DNA from: Acidaminococcus sp.
GTDB lineage: Bacteria > Bacillota > Negativicutes > Acidaminococcales > Acidaminococcaceae
Direction of reading: 5' to 3'
DNA length: 64,000 nucleotides
NCBI GenBank assembly: GCA_022482815.1
Contig: JAKVOM010000001.1
Location: 2,190,946 to 2,254,945, forward strand
Part shown: positions 32,689 to 59,942 of the stretch, piece after piece
How positions within the stretch are numbered: the stretch's first letter is position 1
Layout: each line of letters starts with the position of its first letter
Translations under genes and position numbers: made by a program
The notes under the pieces: generated by a model
What the model was told of the DNA's origin: nothing
What the model saw: only the letters and a program-made list of their open reading frames with translations
Databases searched by the model: none

Positions 32689-33933
32689 ATGATCTACGTT
32701 GGAATTGATGTGTCCAAAGACAAACATGACTGCTGCATCCTTGACCCAGAGCATAAGTCCAGGTACAAGCAATTTACTATTACCAATGATTGGGAGGGCT
32801 TTGACTTTCTGCTGAAGCAGATATGCTCTTACAAACAACCGGCAGAAAACATAAAAGTAGGGCTTGAAGCCACCGGACCTTACAGCGAGAATATCACCAG
32901 ATTCCTGCTGAATAACGGGCTACCAACTTATGTCTTCAATCCCATGTTGACAGATCAATACAAAAAGAGTCATAGCCTTCGCAAAACTAAAACCGATCGC
33001 ATTGATGCTCATTTCATAGCCTGTATGTTCATGTCCGATTTGGATCTCAAACCCTACGTTCCTAAAGAATACCACAATGAACGTCTCATGTCACTTACCA
33101 GATCTCGGTTCAGAATGGTTCAGGCAAGAACAAAGATTAAACAAGACGTGGATCGGCTTGTGGTTCTCAACTTCCCTGAACTAGGAAAATATATGAACCT
33201 GAATTCTGCTACTGCTCACGCTATATTCATGGAATATCCTACTCCCGAGGAGCTGGCAAACGCCAACTTGAAACACTTGAAAAACATTATTCACAAGGCA
33301 TCCAGAGGCAGCTTAAATGAGGATTTGGCTGAACAAATTCGTGACGAAGCAAAAAAATCTATCGGTAAACACAACAATCTGGGCAATGAACATGAATTGC
33401 GGGCGAACATCCGGATTCTTGAGGACTATGATGAAGAAATTCGCAAAATCGAGGCTGAGGAAAAGGAGCTGCTGAGCGAGCATCCGGAACCTTTGCTTAC
33501 AATTCCTGGGATTGGTGCCGTCACAGGAGCTGCAATTTTAGCGGAAGTCGGGGATTTTTCCAGGTTCTCTTCTCCCGACAAAGTTCTAGCCTATGCCGGG
33601 CTTGCACCGTCCAGGAACCAGTCAGGACGTCGAAGTGGGATAGGTCGAAGCGCCCACATGGAGAAAAGAGGGTCACGTTATCTACGATTTGCGCTCTTTA
33701 ACGCAGCGATATTCGTCTGCCGGTACGAACCAGCCTACAAGGAATATTTAGCTAAGAAACTAAACGAAGGCAAGCATTACTACATAGCAATCTCTCATGC
33801 AGTTAAAAAATTGGTACGGTTAATTTATGCACTTCAGACAACAGGAAATACATACAAAACATCTGCTCAATTAATGCTTCAAAAGCAGATAAACACTAGC
33901 TCCGATTCACAGAAATTTGCACTTGACATATGA
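32689..33933 (+). CDS. IS110-family transposase (bridge-RNA-guided recombinase type)
   Basis: 414 residues. The N-terminal RuvC-like DEDD domain shows YVGIDVSKDKHDCC (Asp6), VGLEATGPYSEN (Glu) and KTDRIDAHFIACM (Asp). The C-terminal transposase-20 domain has TIPGIGAVTGAAILAEVGDF and LAYAGLAPSRNQSGRR with the catalytic-Ser region. TAGGAGGT precedes the ATG. The frame is intact and full length, so the element may be active. It is co-oriented with the putative bridge RNA. Confidence 0.96.
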   Translation: MIYVGIDVSKDKHDCCILDPEHKSRYKQFTITNDWEGFDFLLKQICSYKQPAENIKVGLEATGPYSENITRFLLNNGLPTYVFNPMLTDQYKKSHSLRKTKTDRIDAHFIACMFMSDLDLKPYVPKEYHNERLMSLTRSRFRMVQARTKIKQDVDRLVVLNFPELGKYMNLNSATAHAIFMEYPTPEELANANLKHLKNIIHKASRGSLNEDLAEQIRDEAKKSIGKHNNLGNEHELRANIRILEDYDEEIRKIEAEEKELLSEHPEPLLTIPGIGAVTGAAILAEVGDFSRFSSPDKVLAYAGLAPSRNQSGRRSGIGRSAHMEKRGSRYLRFALFNAAIFVCRYEPAYKEYLAKKLNEGKHYYIAISHAVKKLVRLIYALQTTGNTYKTSAQLMLQKQINTSSDSQKFALDI

Positions 33934-42958: not shown

Positions 42959-44002
42959 TTAGGCGACCAGAGGAACTGCTGGTCTGTTTGATAAATCTCT
43001 GCATTTAGCAGTTTTCAATGTTGCCAAAACAAAAGTTAAGAAGATGTTCCTTTTCTCCATGTCGCTTTCTTTGGCGTAATTTACAAGGTTATTCCACACA
43101 AGATAGTTGTTCAGATACTTGGTAGAAACACCGTTAAAGCCACGCATAAACCTCTTTAGCTGGCTATGGTAGCTATTGATATGTTGGATATTATAAATGC
43201 CTTTCTTGGCTTTGCCAGTCTTTAACTGCACAAGGTCAATGCCATTGGCATTTGTAAATCTCACATAGGAGTTCATCTTGTCCGTAACAAGAGTGGAATT
43301 GGTCTTAATCCTACCATCATAAATATGATGTAAATCTCTTGTAGAAACTCTACCAGTATTCGTAATCTTGGAGATAGACAAGCCATTCCTATTAACCGCA
43401 CAAGGAACACATACCTTTTCTTGGGACAAGCCTCTGATATGTGTAGAATGACCACGCTTATGAGCCTTGCGTGGCATAGCAAATGTCTTACTCTTGCTAT
43501 GATTGCCCTTGTACGAGATGGCGAAAAAAGTTTCGTCAGCCTCAATAATGCCGTCAAGGGTAACATCGTCTGCCATATTCTGAAGTGCATCCAAAATCTT
43601 GTGTCTCCAAAGGAATGCGGTGTTTCTGTGAATCCCACAAGCAACAGCAGTCTTACGAATGGATAAGCCATTCATCATACAATCAATGTACTGCTCCCAC
43701 ACGGACAAGTCTTTTCTTGTACCAGACACAATGGAGTTCGTAGCAATCACGAAGGACTTGCCACAATCCTTACATACATATCGCTGTGTGCCATCTTTAC
43801 GATGACCATTGCGAACCACATGGATACAGCCACAAAGAGGGCATACACGACCATTTGCAAAGCGTTCCTTTGCTACGAAATCTTCAATATTCAAAGACTT
43901 TACAAAGGCAGGACTTAAAAGCATTGTTTTAAGGCTTTCCTGCTCTGCGACAGTCAACATACCGATAATATCTAATGCGTCTTTGATAGTAGGCATATCC
44001 AA
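42959..44002 (-). CDS. IS1595-family (ISSag10-like) transposase
   Basis: 347 residues. The N-terminal zinc ribbon CPLCGCIHVVRNGH..CKDCGKSF is followed by the ISXO2-like nuclease domain: IIEADETFFAIS, LVTDKMNSY and HINSYHSQLKRFM, giving Asp, Asp and a third position with Asn/His rather than Glu. Intact, with the start near the right inverted repeat. It should mobilise the 1725-bp unit including lnu(C). Confidence 0.95.
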   Translation of the reverse strand: MDMPTIKDALDIIGMLTVAEQESLKTMLLSPAFVKSLNIEDFVAKERFANGRVCPLCGCIHVVRNGHRKDGTQRYVCKDCGKSFVIATNSIVSGTRKDLSVWEQYIDCMMNGLSIRKTAVACGIHRNTAFLWRHKILDALQNMADDVTLDGIIEADETFFAISYKGNHSKSKTFAMPRKAHKRGHSTHIRGLSQEKVCVPCAVNRNGLSISKITNTGRVSTRDLHHIYDGRIKTNSTLVTDKMNSYVRFTNANGIDLVQLKTGKAKKGIYNIQHINSYHSQLKRFMRGFNGVSTKYLNNYLVWNNLVNYAKESDMEKRNIFLTFVLATLKTAKCRDLSNRPAVPLVA

Positions 44003-44514: not shown

Positions 44515-45180
44515 GTCGAGTAGACGGGTCGAGTTGCCTCGCCCGCCCCTCACAGAACCGTACGTGCGGTTTTCCCGCATACGGCTCTTAGAATAATCTT
44601 TCAGCACCATATCTGCACTCTTGCACTCGGTGCCTTAATTTCTGTGTCGCAATTTCCATTATGGTAACCTCTTTGTGTTACCTTCTGTTTTGAGACAGAA
44701 ATCGATTATTCTTTGCCCCCTTCGCTCCGCCTACTTTCATAGGTTTCATCACTACTATGAGGCAATCCGACTACTGACTCAGCTTTTGCCAACCTCCGTA
44801 CAGTTAAGTATTTAAGTCAGCATACCACTGTCCCTTGGACTGAGTCAGTTCTCCCAGGTACATGAATAGTGTTTGTGTACTCGCCGTGCACTTGGACCCC
44901 GATGGAACTCTGTGCAGTTCTCGCCGCAGTTTCCTGCTAACGAACTGTACGCTTCTGCCTGCGACCGGTGATAAGGTATCGGCTTCCATATTACGGTTAA
45001 CGAGGCTGATTCTGCTTTACGCCTTGCTCATCGCATTTGGCATTACGGCTCTCACACTCCCTGTCTACGCTTCATGCTCACCTCACGGCTCTGCATGCAA
45101 GACTCGGTACCAGCTGCTTGCTAGACTTTACTGGATTCGGACTTTCACCGAACTATACTATTCACGCCGAACTGGCGCAC
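44515..45180 (-). ncRNA. ORF-less group II intron
   Basis: On the minus strand it begins GTGCGCC (GUGYG consensus) at 45180 and ends TACTCGAC at 44515. Domain V is the hairpin GAGCCGTATGCGGG..CCGCACGTACGGTTC (44555-44587), and domain VI follows with GCGGGCGAGGCAACTCGACC. Domain IV keeps only a 23-codon remnant (44588-44659) instead of a reverse-transcriptase gene. The exons are exactly repeat A's end GGATGAT and repeat B's GACC, which are contiguous in uninterrupted copies (51557, 54985). It needs a maturase in trans for mobility. Confidence 0.87.
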
Positions 45181-45853: not shown

Positions 45854-46129
45854 TCAAACAAAATTGATTTGCAGTACTTTTCCCATGCCTGCAGCGAGAC
45901 GCTGCAATGTCTTTATGGAAGGATTAGCGTTACCGTTCTCAATTTTACTGATATCGCTTTGCGTCATTCCACTTTTAGCAGCCAACTCTTTTTGAGTCAG
46001 GCCAGACCCTTTACGGGCATCAATAATGGCTTGAATAATTGCTCTTTCAGGTTCAAGTGCTTCATACTTCTTCTTGAAGCTTTTATTTTTCATTTCTTCA
46101 TTGAGATAGTCATTAAATTTAACTGTCAT
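45854..46129 (-). CDS. XRE-family antitoxin (HigA-like)
   Basis: 91 residues from the ATG at 46127-46129 (MTVKFNDYLNEEMK), chosen because AGGAGG lies eight bases upstream. The helix-turn-helix occupies about 40-85 (LTQKELAAKSGMTQSDISKIE, seen as QKELAAKSG and QSDISKIENG). It follows the toxin gene by one base, the toxin-first order of higBA. The expected role is to neutralise the toxin and repress the operon through the palindrome at 46511. Confidence 0.9.
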   Translation of the reverse strand: MTVKFNDYLNEEMKNKSFKKKYEALEPERAIIQAIIDARKGSGLTQKELAAKSGMTQSDISKIENGNANPSIKTLQRLAAGMGKVLQINFV

Positions 46130-46130
46130 T

Positions 46131-46481
46131 TCATTTCCCTCCTCTTGAAAGGAAATCATTTCGATATTTAATCGCTTTTTCTATTTCACTTTTTGGTGTC
46201 TTATTCTGCTTTTTTATAAAACCATTTGTCATAATAATCCGATGCTCAACATAGAAAAAATACAAAACTCTAAATGAATTCGAGCCTTTTCTAACTCTTA
46301 ACTCAAAAATTCCATTTTTAAGAGGTTTGGAATACGGTTCCCGCAAAGAATTACCATTATGTTGCAAAAGTGTGATAAAACTTGATATTTTAACTCGCGT
46401 ATCTTCATCTAAAGTACGAAAAAAATCAAGAACTGGACAAAATCCATCACAAGTTTCGTAAAATTCTACAGTAAAGTTCAT
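46131..46481 (-). CDS. RelE/HigB-superfamily toxin (phage Gp49-like)
   Basis: 116 residues. MNFTVEFYETCDG start, SLREPYSKPLKNGIFELRVR, and FRVLYFFYVEHRIIMTNGFIKK with many basic residues, as in ribosome-dependent mRNases of the RelE/HigB fold (Gp49 family). Paired with an XRE antitoxin. The C-terminal KxxKTPxxEIEKA helix is typical. Activity is inferred from family. Confidence 0.9.
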   Translation of the reverse strand: MNFTVEFYETCDGFCPVLDFFRTLDEDTRVKISSFITLLQHNGNSLREPYSKPLKNGIFELRVRKGSNSFRVLYFFYVEHRIIMTNGFIKKQNKTPKSEIEKAIKYRNDFLSRGGK

Positions 46482-46563: not shown

Positions 46564-46965
46564 TCACACCTTCTCCAGCTTCACGATCCTTTTCACCGGC
46601 ACGACTTCTCCTGTCTCCAGCGTCAGTGTCTTTCTGGTCAGGTCTATTTTCCTCAGCATGCCTTTGATTTCCACATATTTCCCGCCTTCTTTACGTGCAT
46701 CGGGCAGGAAGCAGGTGATGGCGACGACCGGGCCTTCGTCGATGCAGTGCATGAGTGCCTGCAGATGCCGGTCGAGTTCGGCTTTGGCTTCTTCGTCTAA
46801 AATATGTTCTGTATCGGTAAAACGTGCTGTCTCCCGCACGATATCGCCGTATCCTTCCAACGCATCAAAGGAGGCAAACTGTGCCGCCCGCGCCGCCTGC
46901 GGCATGGTATGGCAGTGCGGTTTGTCCGGATAGGGCCGGTGCAGGATATCTTCGTAGCGTTTCAT
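46564..46965 (-). CDS. YolD-like protein
   Basis: 133 residues. The N-terminal RYEDILHRPYPDKPHCHTMP and the C-terminal beta-rich part with GMLRKIDLTRKTLTLETGE match the YolD family that accompanies UvrX/UmuC-type Y-family polymerases in Firmicutes. Its ATG overlaps the polymerase stop by four bases. The molecular role is unknown; a polymerase accessory function (UmuD-like) has been suggested for the family. Confidence 0.82.
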   Translation of the reverse strand: MKRYEDILHRPYPDKPHCHTMPQAARAAQFASFDALEGYGDIVRETARFTDTEHILDEEAKAELDRHLQALMHCIDEGPVVAITCFLPDARKEGGKYVEIKGMLRKIDLTRKTLTLETGEVVPVKRIVKLEKV

Positions 46966-48401
46966 GCCCGATGCCCCCCAACCTGTTGATTTCTTTCCAG
47001 CGTCCTTGCCCCTTCGCAGAGGCTGCTGGCCTTAAAGAGACAGCTCCGGCCGTACCGGTGATGCAGTGCGACGGCCGCCTGCTGGAGCCGGTCTTCCCGG
47101 AGATTGGGCATAGCCGCCAGTGTCTCTTCCGTTCCAAACAGCGACGGCAGCATCTTTTCTTCCATGACAGACGCTGTCCGGTCCCGCACATGAAGTACCG
47201 TCACCGTCACGCGCCGAATCTGCCGGTACGGATTCACGATACGGTCATAGAGCGCCAGTGCCGTCCGCGTAAGAAGCGATACAGAATCGGTAAACCCCTT
47301 GAGCCGCTGCGACCCATGGACACGAAAATCAAAGAACCCGGCCGACAGATCACTGACCTTATGCTCATAACCGAGCGTCAGCACCACTTCGTCCGTAACG
47401 ACGCCCTTTTCCGTCAGGCTGAGTGCCAGGGCATCCATCATCTCCCGTATAATTAAACGGGCGCTTTCCGCACTATAAGGCCGCGGCAGTACCTGCCCGG
47501 ACCCGAGACTGTTGTCCCGCGGCCGGTACGCCTTGATATCTTTCATCGTGCAGGGCTCCCAGCCCCAGGCATGGTCAATCAAGAGCTCGGCATTGATGCC
47601 AAAAAGCTTATACAGCTGCGCCTCACTCGTGAGAGAAAAGCGGGCAATATCGCCCATCGTATAGAGCCCGTGCGCTTCCAGCTTCGACGCGTATCCCGGC
47701 CCGATTCGCCAAAAGTCCGTCAGCGGCTGATGATCCCACAGCTGCCGCCGGTAGCCCATCTCATCGAGCGAGGCAATCCGCATCCCGTAGGCGTCGGGCT
47801 GCATGGACTTAGCCACGATATCCATGGCCACCTTACTGAGATAGAGATTCGTCCCGATGCCCGCTGTCGCCGTAATGCCCGTTTCCTTATAGACATCATC
47901 CAGCATGACCCGTGTCAGTTCGTACGGCGTGAGCCTGTACATCTCCCGATAAGGCGTCACGTCCATCATCACTTCATCGACGGAATAGACGTGAATATCC
48001 TCAGGTGCCAGATAGCGCAGATAAATCCCGTAAATCCGCCGGCTGTAATCCATATAGAGCTTCATGCGCGGCGTTGCCGTAATATAATCCAGTTTGAGAG
48101 AAGGATCGGCCTTGAGTTCCGCATCTATGTAGGAAGAATCACGAAACTTTTTACTCGGTGCCCGCGTAAGGCGCAGCTTATTCAGATCTTCCACGCGGCG
48201 GATTACTTCAAAAAGCCGCGGCCGTCCCGGTACCCCACGTGCCTTGAGCGGCGGCGATACAGCGAGACAAATCGTCTTGTCCGTACGGCTCTTATCCGCT
48301 ACAACTAAACAAGTGTTTAACGGGTCAAGGCCCCGCTCCACACATTCTACGGAGGCATAAAATGACTTTAAATCGATGGATACGTAACTGCGCTGCTCCA
48401 T
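46962..48401 (-). CDS. Y-family DNA polymerase (UmuC/UvrX-like)
   Basis: 479 residues from the ATG at 48399-48401, supported by AGGAGG seven bases upstream. Palm motifs: YVSIDLKSFYASVECVERG (first metal Asp) and IHVYSVDEVMMDVTPY (the SxDE catalytic pair, here SVDE). The thumb and little-finger domain carries DFWRIGPGYASKLEAHGL. It performs error-prone bypass of DNA lesions. A LexA box upstream implies SOS induction. Co-transcribed with the YolD-like gene. Confidence 0.93.
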   Translation of the reverse strand: MEQRSYVSIDLKSFYASVECVERGLDPLNTCLVVADKSRTDKTICLAVSPPLKARGVPGRPRLFEVIRRVEDLNKLRLTRAPSKKFRDSSYIDAELKADPSLKLDYITATPRMKLYMDYSRRIYGIYLRYLAPEDIHVYSVDEVMMDVTPYREMYRLTPYELTRVMLDDVYKETGITATAGIGTNLYLSKVAMDIVAKSMQPDAYGMRIASLDEMGYRRQLWDHQPLTDFWRIGPGYASKLEAHGLYTMGDIARFSLTSEAQLYKLFGINAELLIDHAWGWEPCTMKDIKAYRPRDNSLGSGQVLPRPYSAESARLIIREMMDALALSLTEKGVVTDEVVLTLGYEHKVSDLSAGFFDFRVHGSQRLKGFTDSVSLLTRTALALYDRIVNPYRQIRRVTVTVLHVRDRTASVMEEKMLPSLFGTEETLAAMPNLREDRLQQAAVALHHRYGRSCLFKASSLCEGARTLERNQQVGGHRA

Positions 48402-48420: not shown

Positions 48421-48434
48421 CAAACATTTGTTCG
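48421..48434 (-). promoter_or_regulatory. LexA (SOS) box before the Y-family polymerase gene
   Basis: CGAACAAATGTTTG on the minus strand matches 13 of 14 positions of the Gram-positive LexA box CGAACRNRYGTTYC. It lies ten bases downstream of the extended -10 TGTGCTATAAT (48444-48454), i.e. at the transcription start. Confidence 0.8.
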
Positions 48435-48525: not shown

Positions 48526-50781
48526 TTACGGTAAAAGCTCTTGACGGCCGTGGGTTTCCGCCCATTCCTTCACGCGGGCCTTTACCTCATCCATGCGCAG
48601 GACACCGAAAGCAAAACCCTTCTGCACGAGTTCCGGCGGCACGTATTCATCGTACTTATCAAAAATCGGTACTTCCTTCGGATAAATCAGCTCCATCGGA
48701 TCCGTAAGCTTCTCGCCCTCTTCGGCCAGCACTTCAAAGAACGTATCTTCATCGGCTTCCATCGTAAACTGCATGAAGTAAGGCCGGAATGTATCCAGAT
48801 GTTTGAGACCCAGCCGGTGAGCGCACTTCAGATTAAGGAAGCGCTCCATGGCAAGGAACCCGTACGAACCGAGCCACGGCAGGAGACACCACATCTTACC
48901 GCCCAGGAAAATGAGTACCCGGTTGGCCGCCCCACTGGCAAGCGCCGTACCCCGTGCCTGTTCAAGGCGGGCCGCCGCGTTTTTCATGAGATACGGATAA
49001 GTCTGCTTTTCCTGCAGGACGCGCCGCATCCGTTCCAGGATCTTCGTATGAATATCACCGGGGCATTCACCGAAGTACGCCGGCACCTTGCCCTTTACCA
49101 GTTCACAGTAAATCAAATGGCGTTTGCGGTCGACCTCGAGGACGCGCCACACGTGCCCTGCAAGAGCAATCTTTTCACCCGGCGGAGGCGGTGCCACGAC
49201 CGTCCCGAGTTCCTGGGAATCATTGCGTACCGTGTATTCTTCGCTTTCCTGAAAAACACCATAGAATTTAAAAGAATTAATGATACGTTCGCCTGCAAGG
49301 CCAACAATGAGCCCGCCGCGTTCCGTTTTTTCGATATGATTTTCTGCCACGAGATACTGCAGCAAGACCTTGTAATCTTCCTGCGTAATCCGGTGGAAAT
49401 ACGGCAGTGTCAGCACCTTTTCCGCCAGCGACGCCGGGGACATCTCCCCGCCGGAAGCCAGCGTACTCATGGTCTGATGGTACAGCAGGCTGAATGGCAG
49501 CCGGTCAAGACGAGGCGGCTCTACCCAGTGTTCTTCCCGGTAAAGCTGAATCAAGGCAATGGCCTGCAGCAGCTTCCAGGGAATCGTTGCCGGGAGCATG
49601 GCCCGGATTTCCGGTTCATCCTCGCGGATAACAAACCACATTTCAGGCGGCAGATTGCGCCGTCCCGTGCGGCCCATACGCTGCAGAAAAGAAGAAACTG
49701 TCCACGGTGCATCGATCTGAAACGCCCGTTCCAGCTTCCCGATATCAATACCGAGTTCCAGCGTCGACGTCGTCACTGTCGTATAGACGTGTGACTCATC
49801 CTTCATCAGCTCTTCGGCACTTTCCCGGTATGACGCAGAAAGGTTGCCGTGGTGAATGAGGAAACGGTCGCGCTCATGACGCAGGTCGCAGTACTGGCGC
49901 AGCGTCGTCGTGACGCCTTCGCACTCTTCACGGGAATTGACAAAGACGAGGCACTTCTTGCCCCGCGTATGTTCAAAGATATAACCAAGACCGGGGTCGG
50001 CCTGCACCGGTGCCTCATCCGTCTTTTCATCAAGGACGGGACTTGCCTGGATGTCCGTTCGTTCATCGCCGGCCTGGGCATCCTTCACATAGAAATGTTC
50101 TACCGAGAGGCGCCATTTGCTGCCCGGAGCCTTGACCCGCGGAATCCGGGTGATGCGCCCTGTTCCCTGGGACAAGAAAGCACCGGTTGCCTCCGGATCA
50201 CCCATTGTCGCCGAAAGCCCGATTCGCCGCGGGTTCACACCGGCAAGGCGGCTCAATCGTTCAATGAGGCAGAGCGTCTGCCCGCCGCGGTCACCGCGCA
50301 GGAGCGAATGCACTTCATCGATGACGACAAAGCGCAGATCCGAGAAAAGACGCGGCACTGCCATATGCTTGTGCAGCAAAATCGCTTCGAGAGACTCCGG
50401 CGTCAGCTGCAGAACACCGGCAGGATGGCGCATGAGCCGTGCCTTATGCGACTGGGACACATCGCCGTGCCAGCGCGTCAGCGGAATATCCCCGGCCTCA
50501 CAGAGCGGCGTCAACCGTTCATACTGGTCGTTAATCAGCGCCTTGAGCGGTGCAATATAGAGGCATCCTACCGACTGGGGCGGATTCTTTTCAAAGAGGC
50601 TCAGAATCGGGAAAAAAGCCGCTTCCGTCTTGCCCGAAGCCGTCGACGCCGTCAGCAGCAGATTATCGTCCGTATGAAAAATTACATCTCCCGCTGCGAC
50701 CTGGATCGGCCGCAGCTCGCCCCAGCCGGACTGATAAATGTAGTCCTGCACAAAAGGCGCATATTCGTCAAAAATGGTCAT
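48526..50781 (-). CDS. Lhr-like DEAD/DEAH-box helicase (BrxHI-like)
   Basis: 751 residues. Superfamily 2 core: Q-like GELRPIQVAA, Walker A TASTASGKTE (44-53), DEVH box 155-158 (FVVIDEVHSLLRG), motif III GLSATMG, and motifs V-VI TSTLELGIDIG and QRMGRTGRRN. A winged-helix and C-terminal region of about 350 residues follow, as in Lhr-type helicases. It is the third gene of a set with a DUF2791 ATPase and a TerB-domain protein, although about 980 bp of repeats separate it from them. GGAG precedes the ATG. Lhr-like BrxHI helicases with DUF2791/BrxD occur in BREX type 2 systems, so defence is the leading guess. Confidence 0.88.
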   Translation of the reverse strand: MTIFDEYAPFVQDYIYQSGWGELRPIQVAAGDVIFHTDDNLLLTASTASGKTEAAFFPILSLFEKNPPQSVGCLYIAPLKALINDQYERLTPLCEAGDIPLTRWHGDVSQSHKARLMRHPAGVLQLTPESLEAILLHKHMAVPRLFSDLRFVVIDEVHSLLRGDRGGQTLCLIERLSRLAGVNPRRIGLSATMGDPEATGAFLSQGTGRITRIPRVKAPGSKWRLSVEHFYVKDAQAGDERTDIQASPVLDEKTDEAPVQADPGLGYIFEHTRGKKCLVFVNSREECEGVTTTLRQYCDLRHERDRFLIHHGNLSASYRESAEELMKDESHVYTTVTTSTLELGIDIGKLERAFQIDAPWTVSSFLQRMGRTGRRNLPPEMWFVIREDEPEIRAMLPATIPWKLLQAIALIQLYREEHWVEPPRLDRLPFSLLYHQTMSTLASGGEMSPASLAEKVLTLPYFHRITQEDYKVLLQYLVAENHIEKTERGGLIVGLAGERIINSFKFYGVFQESEEYTVRNDSQELGTVVAPPPPGEKIALAGHVWRVLEVDRKRHLIYCELVKGKVPAYFGECPGDIHTKILERMRRVLQEKQTYPYLMKNAAARLEQARGTALASGAANRVLIFLGGKMWCLLPWLGSYGFLAMERFLNLKCAHRLGLKHLDTFRPYFMQFTMEADEDTFFEVLAEEGEKLTDPMELIYPKEVPIFDKYDEYVPPELVQKGFAFGVLRMDEVKARVKEWAETHGRQELLP

Positions 50782-50809
50782 AATTTAACTCCATGCCAAA
50801 TCGTTAGAT

Positions 50810-50932
50810 TTGGCTATCCTCTACAACCTTCTTCCACGATGCGAAGCATCGTCGGAAGGAGGTCTCTAAGTTGCAATGCTCCGCATTGCTCGAATAGAAT
50901 AAAAAATTAAAAGATTAAAAGATATAAGGGAC
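50810..50932. repeat. short hairpin fragments before repeat A
   Basis: CCAAATCGTTAGATTTGG, CCTTCTTCCACGATGCGAAGCATCGTCGGAAGGAGG (described as arms CCTTCTTCC and GGAAGGAGG) and GCAATGCTCCGCATTGC. Confidence 0.6.
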
Positions 50933-51164
50933 ATCATCCCCCGCAAGCGGTCCCCCTTCCTCAATGTCGCGCAGCGACGTCGAGGAAGGTCCCTAAAGAA
51001 TATATCGCAGCGATCTTTTTATATTTTTTAAGGCAAACCGACGTCAGGAGGTTTGGCTACGGGGTACCTTCTTCCAAGCCGCCCCGCTCGTGGCGGCTTC
51101 GGAAGGAGGAGAATCGCAGTCGCCGCTGACAAAGGAAGCGGTGACGAGTGCGATGGAGGATAGC
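50933..51164. repeat. repeat A copy
   Basis: ATCATCCCCCGCAAGCGG at the left and the variant GTGCGATGGAGGATAGC at the right. The hairpin tips are CGCGCAGCG and GCCGCCCCGCTCGTGGCGGC. Confidence 0.82.
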
Positions 51165-51171
51165 ATTTTTA

Positions 51172-51560
51172 ATTTATTTGCCAAGGCGGAGCCTTGGCGA
51201 CTATATCCGTGCCTTCTTCGAGCGTCAGCGAGGAAGAAGGAGGGACCGCTTGCGGGGGATATTCAGTTAGATAACAGGTAAGGGTAAATAAGAGAATAAA
51301 AACAGCAGCACTCCTGAAGGTAGCCAAATCAAAGATTTGGCTCAATGGAATTAGGACGAACCTTTATCGTACCCATTCCTGTTCCTGCGTTCTGAATGAA
51401 TACCCACCACGGACGGAAAGCGACTACGTCGCATTCCTGTGGTCCCTCCCTCTTATTTTTTTATCAAAAAACAAGAGGGCGAAAGAGCTGCTGAAATTTC
51501 CAATAGTACTTTTAGAATAATGAAACGTTTAAAAAGGAGTTACAAAATAATAAGAGGGTC
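51172..51560. repeat. repeat B, copy 4
   Basis: GCCAAGGCGGAGCCTTGGC at the left: the stem is changed from GCTAAAGC / GCTTTAGC in other copies but still pairs. It ends AATAAGAGGGTC, joined directly to repeat A. Confidence 0.85.
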
Positions 51561-51754
51561 ATCATCCACCGCAAGCGGTCCCCCTTCCTCAATGTCGCGC
51601 AGCGACGTCGAGGAAGGTCCCTAAAGAATATACCGCAGCGATCTTTTTATATTTTTAAGGCAAACCGACGTCAGGAGGTTTGGCTACGTTGAACCTCCTT
51701 TCACGACGCTTCGCGTCGTCGAAAGGAGGAGAATCGCTTGCGATGGAGGATAGC
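51561..51754. repeat. repeat A copy joined to B
   Basis: ATCATCCACCGC start. The second hairpin is CCTCCTTTCACGACG..CGTCGTCGAAAGGAGG (shorter arms CTTTC / GAAAG), and the end is TTGCGATGGAGGATAGC. It stops 11 bases before the DUF2791 gene's stop. Confidence 0.82.
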
Positions 51755-51765
51755 TTCTTTTGCTT

Positions 51766-53079
51766 TTAAATCGTAAATTCCGCAAACTCTTTCTTTGTTT
51801 TCTCGCCTTCTACTTCATTCTGCGCATACGTAAACTCATCCGACTTCATAAAGTCTCCAATACTCTTCTCAGGATGCTGGTACACGAGGTCGAGCAATTC
51901 GATAAAGTCACGGATAATCTCACGCGGCGTAATATGCGAATCAGCGCCGACACGAGCGTATTCGAGTTTGATAAACGTCGCCAGATCTGTTTCCTTCACA
52001 GTCGTCTCATAATCATACAGCGTGCTGTGAATATCCCGCAGCTTCTCCGTCAGAATCAGCATTTCTTCCGGTGTGAGCGGCTGCAGGTAAATGACAGGCG
52101 CCATAAGGTCTTTGACTTCCGTGCTGAAATGCCCGGACGCCAGGCGCGAACGCAGCGCTTCATAGCTGTAGATACCACGGCGCTGGTCTTCGACACACTG
52201 CGGCGTGCCGCTCATCAAAATACCCAGATAATGAGCCTTGCCCTGCATCGTATCATTGAACATAGTCAGGATCTTTTCGTAGTTATTCTGTCTCGACAGG
52301 GCATTTGGGATCTTATAGATATTCACGAGTTCATCAATGAGGATAAAGAGGCCCTTGTATCCGGCCTGCTTCAGGAACATGGCAAAAACCTTCAGATAAT
52401 CATACCAGCTGTCATCGCTGATAATGACGCCGACACCCAGTTCCTGCCGCGCTTCGGTCTTCGTATTGTATTCCCCGCGGAACCATTTGACGACCTTAGC
52501 CTTCGTCACTTCGTCGTCGTCGCGGTACGCGTTATAATACAGCGTCAACAGACGCGCAAAATCAAAGCCGTGCACCAATTCATTCAGGGAAAACACGACT
52601 TCCTGGATTTTCTTTTCCACGGCAAGCGACAAATTCGGATCCGTCATGGCAAAATTGCCATCCGTCATGACCTGCTGCTGCACGCGGCTGATCCACCGGT
52701 CCAGAATGAGCGTCAACGCGCCGCCCTCCGGTTTCGTCTTGGTCGACATATTGCGAACCAGTTCCCGGTATGTCGCAAGCCCCTGCCCTTTCGTACCGGA
52801 TAAACGCCGTTCCGGAGAAAGATCCCCATCGACCACGACAAAATTCTTTTCCAGCACGTAATTGCGGATGGTCTGCAGCAAAAAGCTCTTGCCGCTGCCG
52901 TACCGTCCGACAATAAAACGAAACGAAGCCCCACCGTCCTCAATGACCGAAACATCATGGAGCAGCGCGTCGATTTCGTTTTTGCGGCCCACCGTAATAT
53001 AAGGCAGCCCGATACGCGGTACGACGCCGCCCTTCAGCGATCCAATGACCGTCCGGGCAATGCGTTTGGGAATTTTCAT
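51766..53079 (-). CDS. DUF2791-family ATP-binding protein (BrxD-like)
   Basis: 437-residue AAA-type P-loop ATPase. Walker A GRYGSGKS at 58-65, Walker B GLFILIDELVNIY, and a sensor-like GILMSGTPQCVED. This is the DUF2791 family, to which BREX BrxD belongs. The first base quartet overlaps the TerB-domain gene stop (ATGA), so the two are co-translated. Known relatives are ATPases of defence systems that probably act on DNA with a helicase partner; its precise role is unknown. Confidence 0.85.
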   Translation of the reverse strand: MKIPKRIARTVIGSLKGGVVPRIGLPYITVGRKNEIDALLHDVSVIEDGGASFRFIVGRYGSGKSFLLQTIRNYVLEKNFVVVDGDLSPERRLSGTKGQGLATYRELVRNMSTKTKPEGGALTLILDRWISRVQQQVMTDGNFAMTDPNLSLAVEKKIQEVVFSLNELVHGFDFARLLTLYYNAYRDDDEVTKAKVVKWFRGEYNTKTEARQELGVGVIISDDSWYDYLKVFAMFLKQAGYKGLFILIDELVNIYKIPNALSRQNNYEKILTMFNDTMQGKAHYLGILMSGTPQCVEDQRRGIYSYEALRSRLASGHFSTEVKDLMAPVIYLQPLTPEEMLILTEKLRDIHSTLYDYETTVKETDLATFIKLEYARVGADSHITPREIIRDFIELLDLVYQHPEKSIGDFMKSDEFTYAQNEVEGEKTKKEFAEFTI

Positions 53080-54719
53080 GGCTTAATCGTTCCTTTCAAT
53101 TCTTCGATATAATCTTCAATCAGCTCGGGTCCGTCACCTTCCGTGAGGACCGTGTCGCTAAACTCATCATACAATTTTTCATTGATGCTGTCGATAAGGA
53201 GGGACGCCATCAGGCCCTTCCCCGTAATCCAGTGCCAATCTCTGCCATAGAGCAGGCACTGCAGGAAATGATACTCGTCCTCCGACAGCCCGTAAGGCAG
53301 TTCTCCCGCAGTAGCAGCCTCCGCTGTTTCACCAGGTGTTTTCCCCGCAGGCTCAGCATCAGATGCTTCGGTCTGCTCTTCCGCAGCCTGTTCTGTTTCC
53401 TGCACTGCAGGCATTTCCACCTCGTGTACAGCCACTTCACGCTGCGTTTCTTCCGCAGCAGCCGGTGTTACCTCCTGCGGTGCTTCCGCATCTTCTACGT
53501 CACTAAGCATCTCTGCAGCCGGATGGCCCGACCGTTCTTCTTCCGTCATCAGCTTATCCCGCGTCGTCTCGGAGTCCCGGCGGATAGATGACAGCCTCGA
53601 AAGATCGATATGGACGTGGCGCCGCTGTTCCAGCTTCTGCGCCTCCAGCATCTCTTCATACGTCTCATCAAAGATCCGCGTCAGATATTTTTTCTCAATA
53701 GGCACGACGAGAGGATACTTAAACTGTACCTTGTCCCGCAGATACGCGTCCATAGCCCGCAGGATTTTCCGGAGCCGCACCAGTTTCCGCTCATTCAGCA
53801 CGCGGTGCTTAATCATAAAAAAACTGCCCTTGCAGGAAACCTGGCAGCGCGGCGTCAGTTCATACGTAAATTCCGGAAGATGGGGTTCCGCCACAAAAAT
53901 TGCCGTCGCAAAAAGAGACAGCCATTCATACGTTTCGTCGTACACATAGGACTCCCAAAACGTATTCTGCCGATGGCGCCTGCAGTATTCAATAAACTTC
54001 ATCGTAGCATGGGCCGCAAAATAAGATAACCACTGTGGATTCTGCTTATAAAGGCGCGACTTCGTCAGGCAGTTCTTGCCCAGCGTGTCCACAAGCGCAA
54101 AAAGATCTTTCGGTGCCAGAGAATCTGCATCTGCCACAACTTCCAGTATATCATTACCCGGAAGGAATAGATTCTTTTCCTCTTCCGTCCATAAGGACAG
54201 CGGCAGGCGGTAATAAATCATATAATCGGGAATCCAGTGCACCAACTTACCGTGGATTACACCGTCCCGTTTCCCGTAAACCTGGTCGATACGGCGCAGC
54301 TTCCGGAGACCATCTTCCACGTTCTCCGTGCCGACCTGGTTCAAGAGTTCATAAATATGGAGAAAAACAAACGTCGTCGGAGCCTCTTCCGTGCCTCCCT
54401 TGCGAAAACGCGTCCGCCAGCCAAAATAGCCGCGAAGCTCCGCATCGGTGAGCGAAGCATACGTGGGGAAATAATGACGGCACGGCCAGGGATACGCCGT
54501 ATCGTCTTCATAGTCTACCGCCGCCCGCGCTTCCTTGAGAAACGCTGCAGGCGGATAGTCGTATACCTGATACTGTCCCAGACACTTCCGTTCCATCTCG
54601 CGCAAATGGCGCAGCGTCTCCGGCAGCTCCACTTCCGTCTTCCGCTTCGGAATCGCCTCCGACTCGTATGTAAAAGGATGGTCGCCGTCCGTCCTGAAAA
54701 TTTTTCTCTTTCCGTACAT
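53076..54719 (-). CDS. TerB-domain protein (TerB_N / TerB_C type)
   Basis: 547 residues from the ATG at 54717-54719 (MYGKRKIFRTDG), selected for GGGAGG eight bases upstream. The TerB_N-like part (about 60-350) includes YFGWRTRFRKGG and FLHIYELLNQVG. A low-complexity linker rich in Ala, Glu and Thr (about 425-490) precedes a C-terminal TerB_C-like domain (LSEDEYHFLQCLLYGRDW). No signal peptide or membrane segment. It is the first gene of the DUF2791/helicase set. TerB-type domains are linked to tellurite and phage-stress systems; the function here is unknown. Confidence 0.8.
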   Translation of the reverse strand: MYGKRKIFRTDGDHPFTYESEAIPKRKTEVELPETLRHLREMERKCLGQYQVYDYPPAAFLKEARAAVDYEDDTAYPWPCRHYFPTYASLTDAELRGYFGWRTRFRKGGTEEAPTTFVFLHIYELLNQVGTENVEDGLRKLRRIDQVYGKRDGVIHGKLVHWIPDYMIYYRLPLSLWTEEEKNLFLPGNDILEVVADADSLAPKDLFALVDTLGKNCLTKSRLYKQNPQWLSYFAAHATMKFIEYCRRHRQNTFWESYVYDETYEWLSLFATAIFVAEPHLPEFTYELTPRCQVSCKGSFFMIKHRVLNERKLVRLRKILRAMDAYLRDKVQFKYPLVVPIEKKYLTRIFDETYEEMLEAQKLEQRRHVHIDLSRLSSIRRDSETTRDKLMTEEERSGHPAAEMLSDVEDAEAPQEVTPAAAEETQREVAVHEVEMPAVQETEQAAEEQTEASDAEPAGKTPGETAEAATAGELPYGLSEDEYHFLQCLLYGRDWHWITGKGLMASLLIDSINEKLYDEFSDTVLTEGDGPELIEDYIEELKGTIKP

Positions 54720-54824
54720 GGACAGCGCCTCCCTTCTCCATAAATCATAGTAAACAAACATATATTCGCTTTCTCCATTATAAAATACTTACGAAAAACG
54801 TCAAGAGGGGAGGAAGAAAGAATA

Positions 54825-54988
54825 AAGAAGCTGTGGCGCTTCGCGCGAAAAGAAGCTGGAAGCTGTGGTCGCCTTCGGCGACGGGCCTGCGGCAGCGAGG
54901 AAAAAGGCGAAAGAGCGGCTGAAATTTCAATTAGTACTTTTAGAATGATGAAACGTCTAAAAAGGAGTTACAAAATAATAAGATGGTC
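54825..54988. repeat. P-type hairpins and the right end of repeat B
   Basis: AGCTGTGGCGCTTCGCGC, GTCGCCTTCGGCGAC, then the terminal 85 bp of B (GGCGAAAGAGCGGCTGAAAT to AATAAGATGGTC) leading into A. Confidence 0.65.
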
Positions 54989-55194
54989 ATCATCCACCGC
55001 AAAGCGGTCCCCCTTCCTCAATGTCGCGCAGCGACGTCGAGGAAGGTCCCTAAAGAATATACCGCAGCATTTTTTTATTTTATTTTCTCTGGCAAACCGA
55101 CGAAGGAGGTTTGGCTACGAAGAGCCTTCTTCCAAGCCGCCCCGCTCGTGGCGGCTTCGGAAGGAGGAGAATCGCTTGCGATGGAGGGATAGCT
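54989..55194. repeat. repeat A copy
   Basis: ATCATCCACCGCAAAGCGG at the left, TTGCGATGGAGGGATAGC at the right; hairpin tips CGCGCAGCG and GCCGCC..GGCGGC. Confidence 0.82.
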
Positions 55195-55212
55195 TTTTTT
55201 ATCTTTTTTATT

Positions 55213-55434
55213 TTCTGTTTCCGATGGACTCTGATGCAAGACAGTCGCAGATGCGCGGAAGACCGGATTGGGGCCACGAAGTCGTACAAAAAGAGGTACG
55301 TCGAGTGGTCACAAGACGGTCTGACAAAGCAGATGCGGCTGGATTCTTCAGAGGACATCGGAAACTACCCTAGATAAAGCTCTGCACACGATGCGTGCGA
55401 GACCTGTCGAGCAACAGAGTGGGCAGGTGCTTTT
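55213..55434 (+). repeat. repeat E, copy upstream of the EptA-like gene
   Basis: CCACGAAGTCGTAC / GTACGTCGAGTGG hairpin within AGACCGG..GGTCT, then GCTCTGCACACGATGCGTGC with GAGACCTGTCGAGC and GCAGGTGC. Here it precedes a co-oriented gene rather than facing a stop codon. Confidence 0.72.
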
Positions 55435-58313: not shown

Positions 58314-59942
58314 TTAGGCCTCTTTTTTCAGCGGATATAAGTGCAAATCCTCTTTGCCGTCTTGAACTTTGTGATGGACCTTCAGGACATTCCGTGCCAT
58401 GGCACATATTCCCACTGTTACCAGGGCATTTCCTTTGCCTCGGGTTTCTAGTCTTCTGACGTTTAATGAATCCTTGAGATCCGCAAAGGCTCCTTCTGCC
58501 TGTATACTGCGGTTCATCCTCAGTTCCTTACCATATTCGGAAGTAATGTTCTTCAGGGATTCTGCCCTCAATGCAGCAAAATTCTTCGAGACCACTAATT
58601 TCTTGTTTCTTTTCTCCATGGGTGTCCTGCAATTGTTCCCATGGATGCACTGTTCCTTGTAGGGACAACCGCTGCAGTCCTTACATTCGTAATATGTTTT
58701 CTCTGACACATATCCTGACCGGTTCTTTACCTGGGTTACTTTACTGACTTTCAGCAGTCTCCTACCTTTACAGATATACATGTCTTGATCAGGCAAATAT
58801 GTCATGTTTTCTGCTTTGCCGATGTCGTTCTTATACTTTTTCCTCTTGCTTCTTTCATAATTGTTAGGCTTGATATATGAAGTATACTGATTCTTCTTCA
58901 GCCAGACCAAGTTCTCTTCGCTTTCATAGCCTGCATCGGCTACAATGTTTGCAAATTTCTGACCGAAGTGGGCTTCAAATCCTTCAAGAAAAGGAATGAG
59001 TGTCCGCATATCTGTTGGATGTGCACTCACATCTGCAAACAAGGTAAAACCGGAATTGTTGGCATATTGGACATTGTATCCCGGCTTTAAGGCGCCATTA
59101 AGCATGGCGTCTTCTTTCATCCTCATAAAGGTAGCATCCGGGTCTGTTTTGGCAAAGCTGTTCCGTTCCCCACAGATGTGAAGCTGCTTCGTATACACCT
59201 TAAGCCGTTTGAGATAGTTAGCTAAAATCTCATAGTACTTCTGTAGAATGGTCTTTCTTTTCCCACATCCGTGAACAAACTCGATCCCTTCAGCCCGCTT
59301 TATGACAAGCAGTTTTTTTAGGAGCTTCTTTAAATGACGGATGTGGAAAGTGTTTCCGTAACAGACCTTGATTCCGAAACGTTCCTCGATTTCGGGAACC
59401 AGTTGCTCCAGTTTCTCTATGAGTTTGTTCTGGCTGCCTAAGACTCTGTTTTTCCAAACAAATTTGTATTTGTTTGCCACAGATTCAATTTTTGTCCCAT
59501 CGATGAACAGGCTATCCAGCGTGATGAAACCGCGAGCCAGCAGCCATTTATCCATCTGAATCATGAGCTCCTTGATACATGGTTTTAGATGGAGGGAACA
59601 AAATCTTGCAATGGTTGCATTATCCGGAGCTTTTTTCCCATCTAAGAGGAACATGAAATGAGTGTCTCTTTTACAGGATTGCTCTATCTTACGCGAACCA
59701 CGAATTCCTTCCATACATGCATAAATGACGATCTCCAGCAGCTGAATTGGTGACGTTAATTTATTCTCGACATGAGAATACGTGTCATACAATGCCTTTA
59801 CATCCATCCCTTCTACCATGGCACGCACCAAGCGAACAGGATCGTCATTAGGGATTTGTACTTCAAAATTTAGAGGAAGAAAAAGTTGATAAGAACTGCC
59901 AATTTTTGTATAATCCTTTTGTGTAGGTTTGTTTTTTGGCAT
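58314..59942 (-). CDS. IS1182-family transposase
   Basis: 542 residues. The N-terminal DUF772-type domain (LPLNFEVQIPNDDPVRLVRA; EGIRGSRKIEQSCKRD) is followed by a DDE nuclease domain: DSLFIDGTKIESVANKY (Asp), NIVADAGYESEENL (Asp), and RSIQAEGAFADLKDSLNVRR (Glu). A Cys cluster CKDCSGCPYKEQC lies near 420. Complete and unbroken, so probably functional. Confidence 0.95.
   Translation of the reverse strand: MPKNKPTQKDYTKIGSSYQLFLPLNFEVQIPNDDPVRLVRAMVEGMDVKALYDTYSHVENKLTSPIQLLEIVIYACMEGIRGSRKIEQSCKRDTHFMFLLDGKKAPDNATIARFCSLHLKPCIKELMIQMDKWLLARGFITLDSLFIDGTKIESVANKYKFVWKNRVLGSQNKLIEKLEQLVPEIEERFGIKVCYGNTFHIRHLKKLLKKLLVIKRAEGIEFVHGCGKRKTILQKYYEILANYLKRLKVYTKQLHICGERNSFAKTDPDATFMRMKEDAMLNGALKPGYNVQYANNSGFTLFADVSAHPTDMRTLIPFLEGFEAHFGQKFANIVADAGYESEENLVWLKKNQYTSYIKPNNYERSKRKKYKNDIGKAENMTYLPDQDMYICKGRRLLKVSKVTQVKNRSGYVSEKTYYECKDCSGCPYKEQCIHGNNCRTPMEKRNKKLVVSKNFAALRAESLKNITSEYGKELRMNRSIQAEGAFADLKDSLNVRRLETRGKGNALVTVGICAMARNVLKVHHKVQDGKEDLHLYPLKKEA

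What the first reader, a model, noticed from the sequence alone, without database searches (positions are those of the whole stretch)
48526..54719. TerB-domain / DUF2791 ATPase / Lhr-like helicase module: candidate defence system
Three leftward genes encode a TerB_N/TerB_C-like protein, a BrxD-type (DUF2791) ATPase overlapping it by four bases, and an Lhr-like helicase. DUF2791 and Lhr-like helicases are also found together in BREX type 2, but no PglX methylase, PglZ phosphatase or BrxC is in the window. The set therefore looks like a compact, stand-alone system, plausibly anti-phage or DNA-stress related. A YolD/Y-polymerase pair under LexA control lies just downstream. The function is inference.
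Basis: partly seen in the sequence, partly recalled or inferred. Interest (0 to 1): 0.75.

Follow-up and report, generated by a model that had tools for sequence, protein, structure and literature searches.

The report
Shango defence operon under SOS control
The three genes are a known bacterial anti-virus system called Shango, found here in a gut bacterium; the new observation is that its promoter carries what looks like the switch sequence of the cell's DNA-damage (SOS) alarm, as do related copies in several other bacterial groups.

Summary
In detail: three leftward genes encode a TerB_N/TerB_C protein, a BrxD-like ATPase overlapping it by four bases, and an Lhr-like SF2 helicase. It is not BREX: the genome's only BrxC/BrxD-family match is this ATPase. 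SngA is in 8 of 9 genomes of the genus (Acidaminococcus), 1 of 28 others of the family and 23 of 398 of a phylum sample that includes this genome.

New is the regulation. An SOS (LexA)-type box follows the -10 of the sngA promoter here and, in weaker forms too, in 8 of 8 related loci. Of 14 near-consensus sites in the 3.06 Mb genome, those in clear promoter position belong to recA, lexA, the Y-polymerase and sngA. Boxes recur in Lactobacillaceae, some Clostridia and Aeriscardovia: 29 of 67 loci against 3.7% of matched windows. None reached that score in 22 other Bacillota loci, nor was an E. coli-type box seen in six gammaproteobacterial ones. My searches found no paper linking Shango to LexA. 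SngA evolves much faster than SngB and SngC. LexA binding is predicted, not shown.

The parts
53076..54719 (-). sngA: TerB_N + TerB_C protein, 547 aa; fast-evolving subunit
   Evidence: PADLOC SngA 3e-59; Pfam TerB_N, TerB_C; start codon and SD read
51766..53079 (-). sngB: BrxC/BrxD-family AAA+ ATPase, 437 aa, GRYGSGKS Walker A and IDE Walker B intact
   Evidence: PADLOC SngB 4e-191; Pfam BrxC_BrxD 2e-170; motifs invariant in 9 of 9; model resembles ORC/Cdc6 AAA+
48526..50781 (-). sngC: Lhr-like SF2 helicase, 751 aa, TASGKT, DEVH and QRMGRTGR motifs intact
   Evidence: PADLOC SngC 3e-265, BrxHI 6e-124; PDB helicase 5v9x 3e-27; motifs read
54755..54768 (-). predicted LexA (SOS) box CGAATATATGTTTG, 8 bases after the -10 of the sngA promoter
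54777..54804 (-). sngA promoter: TTGACG, 16-base spacer, TATAAT
   Evidence: read
50782..51765 (.). 984-base non-coding insertion of dispersed palindromic repeats between sngB and sngC
   Evidence: gap is about 16-90 bases in relatives
46962..48401 (-). neighbour: Y-family DNA polymerase (not part of Shango)
   Evidence: Pfam IMS 8e-24, IMS_C 2e-11
48421..48434 (-). LexA-type box CGAACAAATGTTTG of the Y-polymerase operon
46564..46965 (-). neighbour: small protein overlapping the polymerase gene by four bases ('YolD-like' by recall)
   Evidence: no Pfam match; homologues beside the polymerase in L016 and L018

Best explanation
The locus is a Shango anti-phage system (shown by family and gene order) whose upstream promoter is repressed by LexA (predicted from the box). 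In an undamaged cell LexA keeps it low. When phage replication, prophage induction or another DNA insult makes single-stranded DNA, RecA filaments trigger LexA self-cleavage and sngABC is induced with recA, lexA and the Y-polymerase (established LexA logic; inferred here). SngB, an AAA+ ATPase whose predicted fold resembles ORC/Cdc6 initiators, would load or gate the Lhr-like helicase SngC on aberrant replication intermediates, and the fast-evolving SngA would be the part that recognises, or is escaped by, the invader (inferred). My estimates: Shango 0.97; LexA control in this organism 0.85; helicase-loading DNA-surveillance mechanism 0.5.
For: PADLOC SngA/B/C matches in order, far above BrxD and BrxHI. 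sngC follows sngB in 79 of 80 relatives; TerB/ATPase/helicase trios annotated in three of four plasmid records and two of two E. coli records opened. Box: YGAANNNNTGTTTR 5-9 bases after TATAAT in 9 of 9 loci of the family (partly read by eye). The recA promoters of all nine genomes of the genus examined carry a site within 2 mismatches of CGAACN4GTTCG (for G001 it lies 248 bases before the match), and lexA of this genome has CAAACAAATGTTTG 76 bases before its start. Genome-wide, CRAAYNNRYGTTTR has 9 sites (reversed control 6); the four with core ATGTTTR are recA, lexA, Y-polymerase and sngA. A matrix built only from 39 recA/lexA boxes reaches 8 bits upstream of sngA in 29 of 67 loci (28 unrounded) against 3.7% of GC-matched windows; sngA boxes resemble the lineage's own lexA boxes in Limosilactobacillus and Aeriscardovia. 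SngB model: Cdc6/Orc1 on DNA Z 16.2, rmsd 4.2, 262 aligned. SngA mean identity in the genus 44% against 80% SngB, 85% SngC, 96.5% RecA.
Against: No experiment. Sites within 2 mismatches are no more numerous in the genome than for the reversed control (14 against 14), so the case rests on position and conservation; the core ATGTTTR was picked after seeing the list. The sngA boxes are not perfect: CGAAT here, TGAAA in four relatives (3 mismatches of 10 to CGAACN4GTTCG) and 4 mismatches in L017, found by eye. lexA promoters of the genus are less clear than recA: 4 of 8 others within 2 mismatches, nothing convincing in G003 and G007. A further phylum sample has 0 of 22 loci at 8 bits (one, L223, is a fragment), a large Lachnospiraceae/Ruminococcaceae clade mostly lacks it and six gammaproteobacterial loci have no E. 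coli-type box (best CTGTN8ACAG site 2-3 mismatches of 8): LexA control is not general for Shango. The 984-base insertion may uncouple sngC from the promoter. The SngA model has no convincing structural match; the five SngB models vary (mean pLDDT 50-78); no complex was predicted.
Confidence: 0.62

Rival explanations
1. Ordinary Shango, constitutively expressed; the box is coincidental or bound by another repressor.
For: The count of near-consensus sites equals the reversed control; box absent in the 22 further Bacillota loci and six gammaproteobacterial ones.
Against: 9 of 9 loci of the family carry a site at the same promoter position; the strict sites in the genome are the recA, lexA and Y-polymerase boxes plus this one; enrichment with a matrix not trained on sngA, in several lineages.
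Confidence: 0.14
2. In this genus the module is mainly a housekeeping DNA-repair helicase system of the SOS regulon, kept in most species, and phage defence is secondary.
For: 8 of 9 genomes, SOS-type box, Y-polymerase near it in 4 of 9 loci.
Against: SngA diverges far more than RecA or its partners, as expected in an arms race; patchy outside the genus (1 of 28 in the family, 0 of 24 further out in order and class); SngB relatives in 691 plasmid records; neighbouring genes differ between species.
Confidence: 0.18
3. A degenerate or minimal BREX type 2 relic.
For: SngB and SngC are homologous to BrxD and BrxHI.
Against: The Shango models score about 460 bits higher for each of the two; the genome has one BrxC/BrxD-family match; the trio stands without BREX-named partners in the six annotated loci opened.
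Confidence: 0.02

Closest known systems
Shango (SngABC)
   Same: Gene order, families and domain content: TerB-like protein, ATPase, DEAD/DEAH helicase; phage protection shown for the Pseudomonas aeruginosa PA14 copy and reported for E. coli (PMC10250203, passages read).
   Different: LexA-type box on the promoter; ATPase and helicase genes separated by a 984-base repeat insertion; SngA only 200 bits to the PADLOC model.
BREX type 2 (BrxD, BrxHI)
   Same: ATPase and helicase families; a published tree puts SngC with BrxHI, DruE and DpdJ (PMC12278908, passages read).
   Different: No separate BrxC in the genome; a TerB protein instead.
Lhr helicase (PDB 5v9x; the name Lhr is recalled, the entry says ATP-dependent DNA helicase)
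   Same: SF2 core, phmmer 3e-27.
   Different: Shorter, in an operon with an AAA+ partner; Lhr winged-helix match below cut-off.
ORC/Cdc6 AAA+ initiators
   Same: Predicted fold of SngB, Z up to 16.2.
   Different: 12% identity; other AAA+ families score 12-13; no evidence of origin binding.

Membership tests
Shango | SngA: TerB-domain protein | tested here: met
   PADLOC SngA 3e-59; Pfam TerB_N and TerB_C above cut-off
Shango | SngB: BrxD-like ATPase next to it | tested here: met
   SngB 4e-191 against BrxD 1e-51; 4-base overlap
Shango | SngC: SF2 helicase downstream, same strand | tested here: met
   SngC 3e-265 against BrxHI 6e-124; 984-base gap
Shango | ATPase and helicase motifs intact | tested here: met
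   Walker A and B residues invariant in 9 of 9; helicase motifs read in the translation (motif names recalled)
Shango | protection against phages | not testable with these tools
   shown for other copies (PMC10250203)
BREX | BrxC/PglY present | tested here: not met
   one BrxC/BrxD-family match in the whole genome, the SngB gene itself
BREX | PglX methylase and PglZ | not tested
   not searched genome-wide; not among the window proteins scanned with Pfam (18)
LexA/SOS regulon | LexA-type box in the promoter | tested here: met
LexA/SOS regulon | LexA binding and induction by DNA damage | not testable with these tools
   needs experiment

The most novel reading that the evidence does not exclude
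In Acidaminococcus, Lactobacillaceae, some Clostridia and an actinobacterium, Shango has been wired into the SOS response, probably more than once, making it an inducible immune system that fires on the DNA damage caused by phage replication or prophage induction; the invader is sensed through RecA and LexA at the level of transcription, and SngA's rapid divergence marks the subunit that phages must escape.
Probability: 0.45. Interest if true: 0.68.

Novelty: new member of a known kind. Interest (0 to 1): 0.5.

Why it matters
Shango protects against phages, but I found no mechanism for it in the passages I saw. A LexA-type box at its promoter in several lineages gives a directly testable clue: the system answers to DNA damage, and may handle the same single-stranded intermediates that activate RecA. 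It predicts that mitomycin C or fluoroquinolones raise phage resistance in lactobacilli that carry it, and that it restrains induced prophages. The contrast between a conserved ATPase-helicase engine and a fast-changing TerB subunit points to SngA as the recognition part.

Tried and rejected
BREX relic: rejected. Y-polymerase pair as part of the system: rejected; next to Shango in 2 of the 80 loci. In the family it is near Shango in 4 of 9 loci (window, L018, L016, and L014 about 3 kb away); L011 and L017 hold only about 1.5-2 kb on that side. LexA control as a general Shango trait: rejected. Phage-borne copies: no SngB match in 50,697 phage records. Known fold for SngA: no Foldseek match at E<=0.001; a second look at Foldseek's own candidates gave Z up to 5.0 only, the two top rows being a MarR-type winged-helix protein on residues 473-546 and an AVAST5 filament chain on residues 53-184, too weak to use. 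Solved structure of SngB by sequence: two hits at E about 0.03, not convincing. A recent paper on YprA-family helicases does not mention Shango in its main text (PMC12458937, term search); another lists TerB for Shango and Bunzi without a function (PMC10952713, passage). A conserved CGTACTTGATTT stretch upstream of sngA in four Bacillota loci (L139, L140, L157, L158) looked like a second operator; I read it as a -35 region. Loci L094 and L097-L101 carry (C)AAACATNTG-type sites at the promoter; I could not match them to a box on their lexA genes (lexA missing or its stretch cut for some), so they stay 'weak'.

Rows dropped: of 80 loci, 11 had no callable sngA frame and 3 had under 80 bases upstream, leaving 66 plus the window. 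L093 counts as 'none' only because its start was called too far upstream; its box is seen (as L012). L146 has the same SngB as L152, which scores 12.8, and was probably missed in the same way. On the other side, L158 passes 8 bits with a doubtful site inside the called frame. L089 has p 0.59 and L110 p 0.21 against their own matched windows, in L089 probably because its short locus holds the polymerase box.
Full report
What is there. The window lies in a 3.06 Mb single-contig genome whose genus, judged by the named records of its closest relatives, is Acidaminococcus. Pfam gives TerB_N and TerB_C, BrxC_BrxD, and DEAD plus Helicase_C. PADLOC gives SngA 3e-59, SngB 4e-191 and SngC 3e-265, well above BrxD (1e-51) and BrxHI (6e-124). 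This is Shango, which inhibited phages when the P. aeruginosa PA14 copy was moved into PAO1 and, as that paper reports, modestly in E. coli (PMC10250203, passages read). The first E. coli paper was not held (its identifier was recalled).

Distribution. SngA is found in 8 of 9 genomes of the genus, 1 of 28 others of the family, 0 of 4 others of the order and 0 of 20 others of the class, and in 23 of 398 genomes drawn from the phylum, this genome included. SngB relatives lie in 691 of 72,556 plasmid records, 449 of them Klebsiella; I opened four, and all four have the three-gene order, the first gene being annotated only as hypothetical in one. With the DNA of a Klebsiella plasmid sngB as query, 479 of 5,426 E. 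coli genomes match, 467 over at least 80% of it. There is no match in 50,697 phage records. A scan of species genomes found 308 relatives, of which the best 80 were kept; most are Bacillota, and a few, several of them metagenome bins, are labelled with other phyla. In 79 of the 80 sngC follows sngB (L105 lacks it). Within the genus the neighbours differ: G006 and G007 share one neighbourhood, the window and G001 share another gene, and SngB of another genus (G020) is closer to the window's (79.6%) than those of four congeners are (74-75%). This fits a horizontally moving system that is well retained in this genus.

Regulation. The sngA promoter is TTGACG, 16 bases, TATAAT (54804-54777), and 8 bases later comes CGAATATATGTTTG (54768-54755). 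In all eight related loci a site of the form YGAANNNNTGTTTR stands 5-9 bases after TATAAT (spacing and the L017 site read by eye). Quality varies: 2 mismatches of 10 to CGAACN4GTTCG in the window, L015, L016 and L018, 3 in L011-L014, 4 in L017. The recA promoters of the nine genomes of the genus carry CGAACAAATGTTTA/G and close forms; lexA of this genome carries CAAACAAATGTTTG, while of eight other lexA genes of the genus four have a site within 2 mismatches and G003 and G007 have none that convinces; the Y-polymerase carries CGAACAAATGTTTG 20 bases before its ATG. In the whole genome CRAAYNNRYGTTTR has nine sites (reversed control six), and the four with the core ATGTTTR are recA, lexA, the Y-polymerase and sngA; that core was picked after seeing the list. 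A less chosen test, up to two mismatches from CGAACAAATGTTTG, gives 14 sites, and the reversed control also 14, so there is no excess in number. Of those 14, recA, lexA, the Y-polymerase and sngA sit in promoters; one (L231) lies 44 bases before a GTG frame but inside the end of another frame; the others are inside frames or away from starts by a mechanical reading of open frames.

A matrix built from 39 recA and lexA boxes, none from sngA, was run upstream of sngA in 67 loci: 29 reach 8 bits (28 before rounding), against 3.7% of GC-matched windows from the same loci. Six of the 29 are from the Acidaminococcus family; the others are Lactobacillus, Limosilactobacillus, Aeriscardovia and four Clostridia, one of these (L158) doubtful. 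A simpler mismatch count gave 26 of 66 at two or fewer mismatches, and 6 of 66 at one, against 4 and 0 of 66 for the reversed pattern. On the SngB tree the label (weak sites counted as box) needs 12 changes; gains and losses cannot be told apart. The result has a clear limit: the 22 further loci from the phylum sample, which were not placed on the tree, have none at 8 bits, the best being 7.1, and in four plasmid and two E. coli loci the best CTGTN8ACAG site has 2-3 mismatches of 8 and the best TACTGTN8ACAGTA site 4-5 of 12.

Evolution and structure. Among eight Acidaminococcus genomes (28 pairs) mean identity is 44% for SngA, 80% for SngB, 85% for SngC and 96.5% for RecA; inside SngA the middle part (172-357) is 36% and the linker (401-470) 19%, while TerB_N and the two TerB_C parts are 54-57%. 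The SngB model (mean pLDDT 77.8, pTM 0.76; the other four models 50-68) aligns best with Cdc6/Orc1 and ORC2 (Z 16.2 and 15.5, rmsd 4.2 and 3.8, 262 and 264 aligned), with TnsC (Z 13.2) and many other AAA+ proteins at 12-13; the AAA+ class is safe and the ORC likeness is a lead. The SngA model (mean pLDDT 83.2) has no convincing match among solved structures. SngC is nearest by sequence to 5v9x and 7lhl helicases, with YprA further down; a published tree groups SngC with BrxHI, DruE and DpdJ (PMC12278908, passages read).

Mechanism. Shown: families, order, box, its position and its recurrence. Inferred: repression by LexA, induction when RecA filaments form during infection, loading of SngC by SngB on abnormal replication DNA, recognition by SngA. 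The 984-base insertion of repeats between sngB and sngC (84 matches listed in this genome, itself included) could weaken sngC expression in this strain; a scan found 4 promoter-like sites there against 1.0 (sd 0.9) in shuffles, two of them on the coding strand, and 3 terminator-like sites against 1.6, so a promoter of its own is possible.

Known or new. The system is known. Searches for Shango with LexA and for Shango with SOS response each found one paper; in the first (PMC13216270) the passages read do not link the two, and the second (PMC10457874) was seen only as a search listing. Two broader searches on LexA and anti-phage systems listed no title on Shango; in one of those papers (PMC13192584) a term search found no mention of Shango. 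Subscription papers are not in that library, so the absence is limited to these searches.

Noticed in passing
window 50782-51765; also about 54860-55250: Long non-coding blocks built of palindromic repeats, with 84 matches listed across this genome; one block lies between sngB and sngC, another just upstream of sngA.
   Followed up: partly
window 44515-45145, - strand: Group II intron RNA: Rfam group-II-D1D4-6 (104 bits) and Intron_gpII (59 bits) about 300 bases apart, too close for a reverse-transcriptase gene between them: looks like an intron without its protein gene.
   Followed up: no
window 45854-46481, - strand: Gp49-like (DUF891) protein followed by an HTH protein overlapping it, as in HigBA-type toxin-antitoxin pairs (recalled), just beyond the Y-polymerase operon.
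   Followed up: partly
window 42959-44002, 58314-59942 and 32689-33933: IS1595-type, DDE (DUF772) and IS110-type transposases around the region.
   Followed up: partly
L205, L206, L208 (upstream of sngA): An inverted repeat ACAAGTGT...ACACTTGT (one mismatch in L206) brackets the -10 region of sngA in three Bacillota genomes without a LexA-type box: perhaps a different operator.
   Followed up: no
L143, L133, L159 (sngC): The best SngC match is split near residue 240 in these loci, with 0.2-1.4 kb between sngB and sngC: maybe insertions in or before the helicase gene.
   Followed up: no
L228, 1-19317: In one E. coli strain Shango is followed directly by two large genes of unknown function (the first over 1500 aa) and preceded by an AbiEii-family pair, an AAA ATPase and an integrase-domain gene: a defence-island-like setting.
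   Followed up: no
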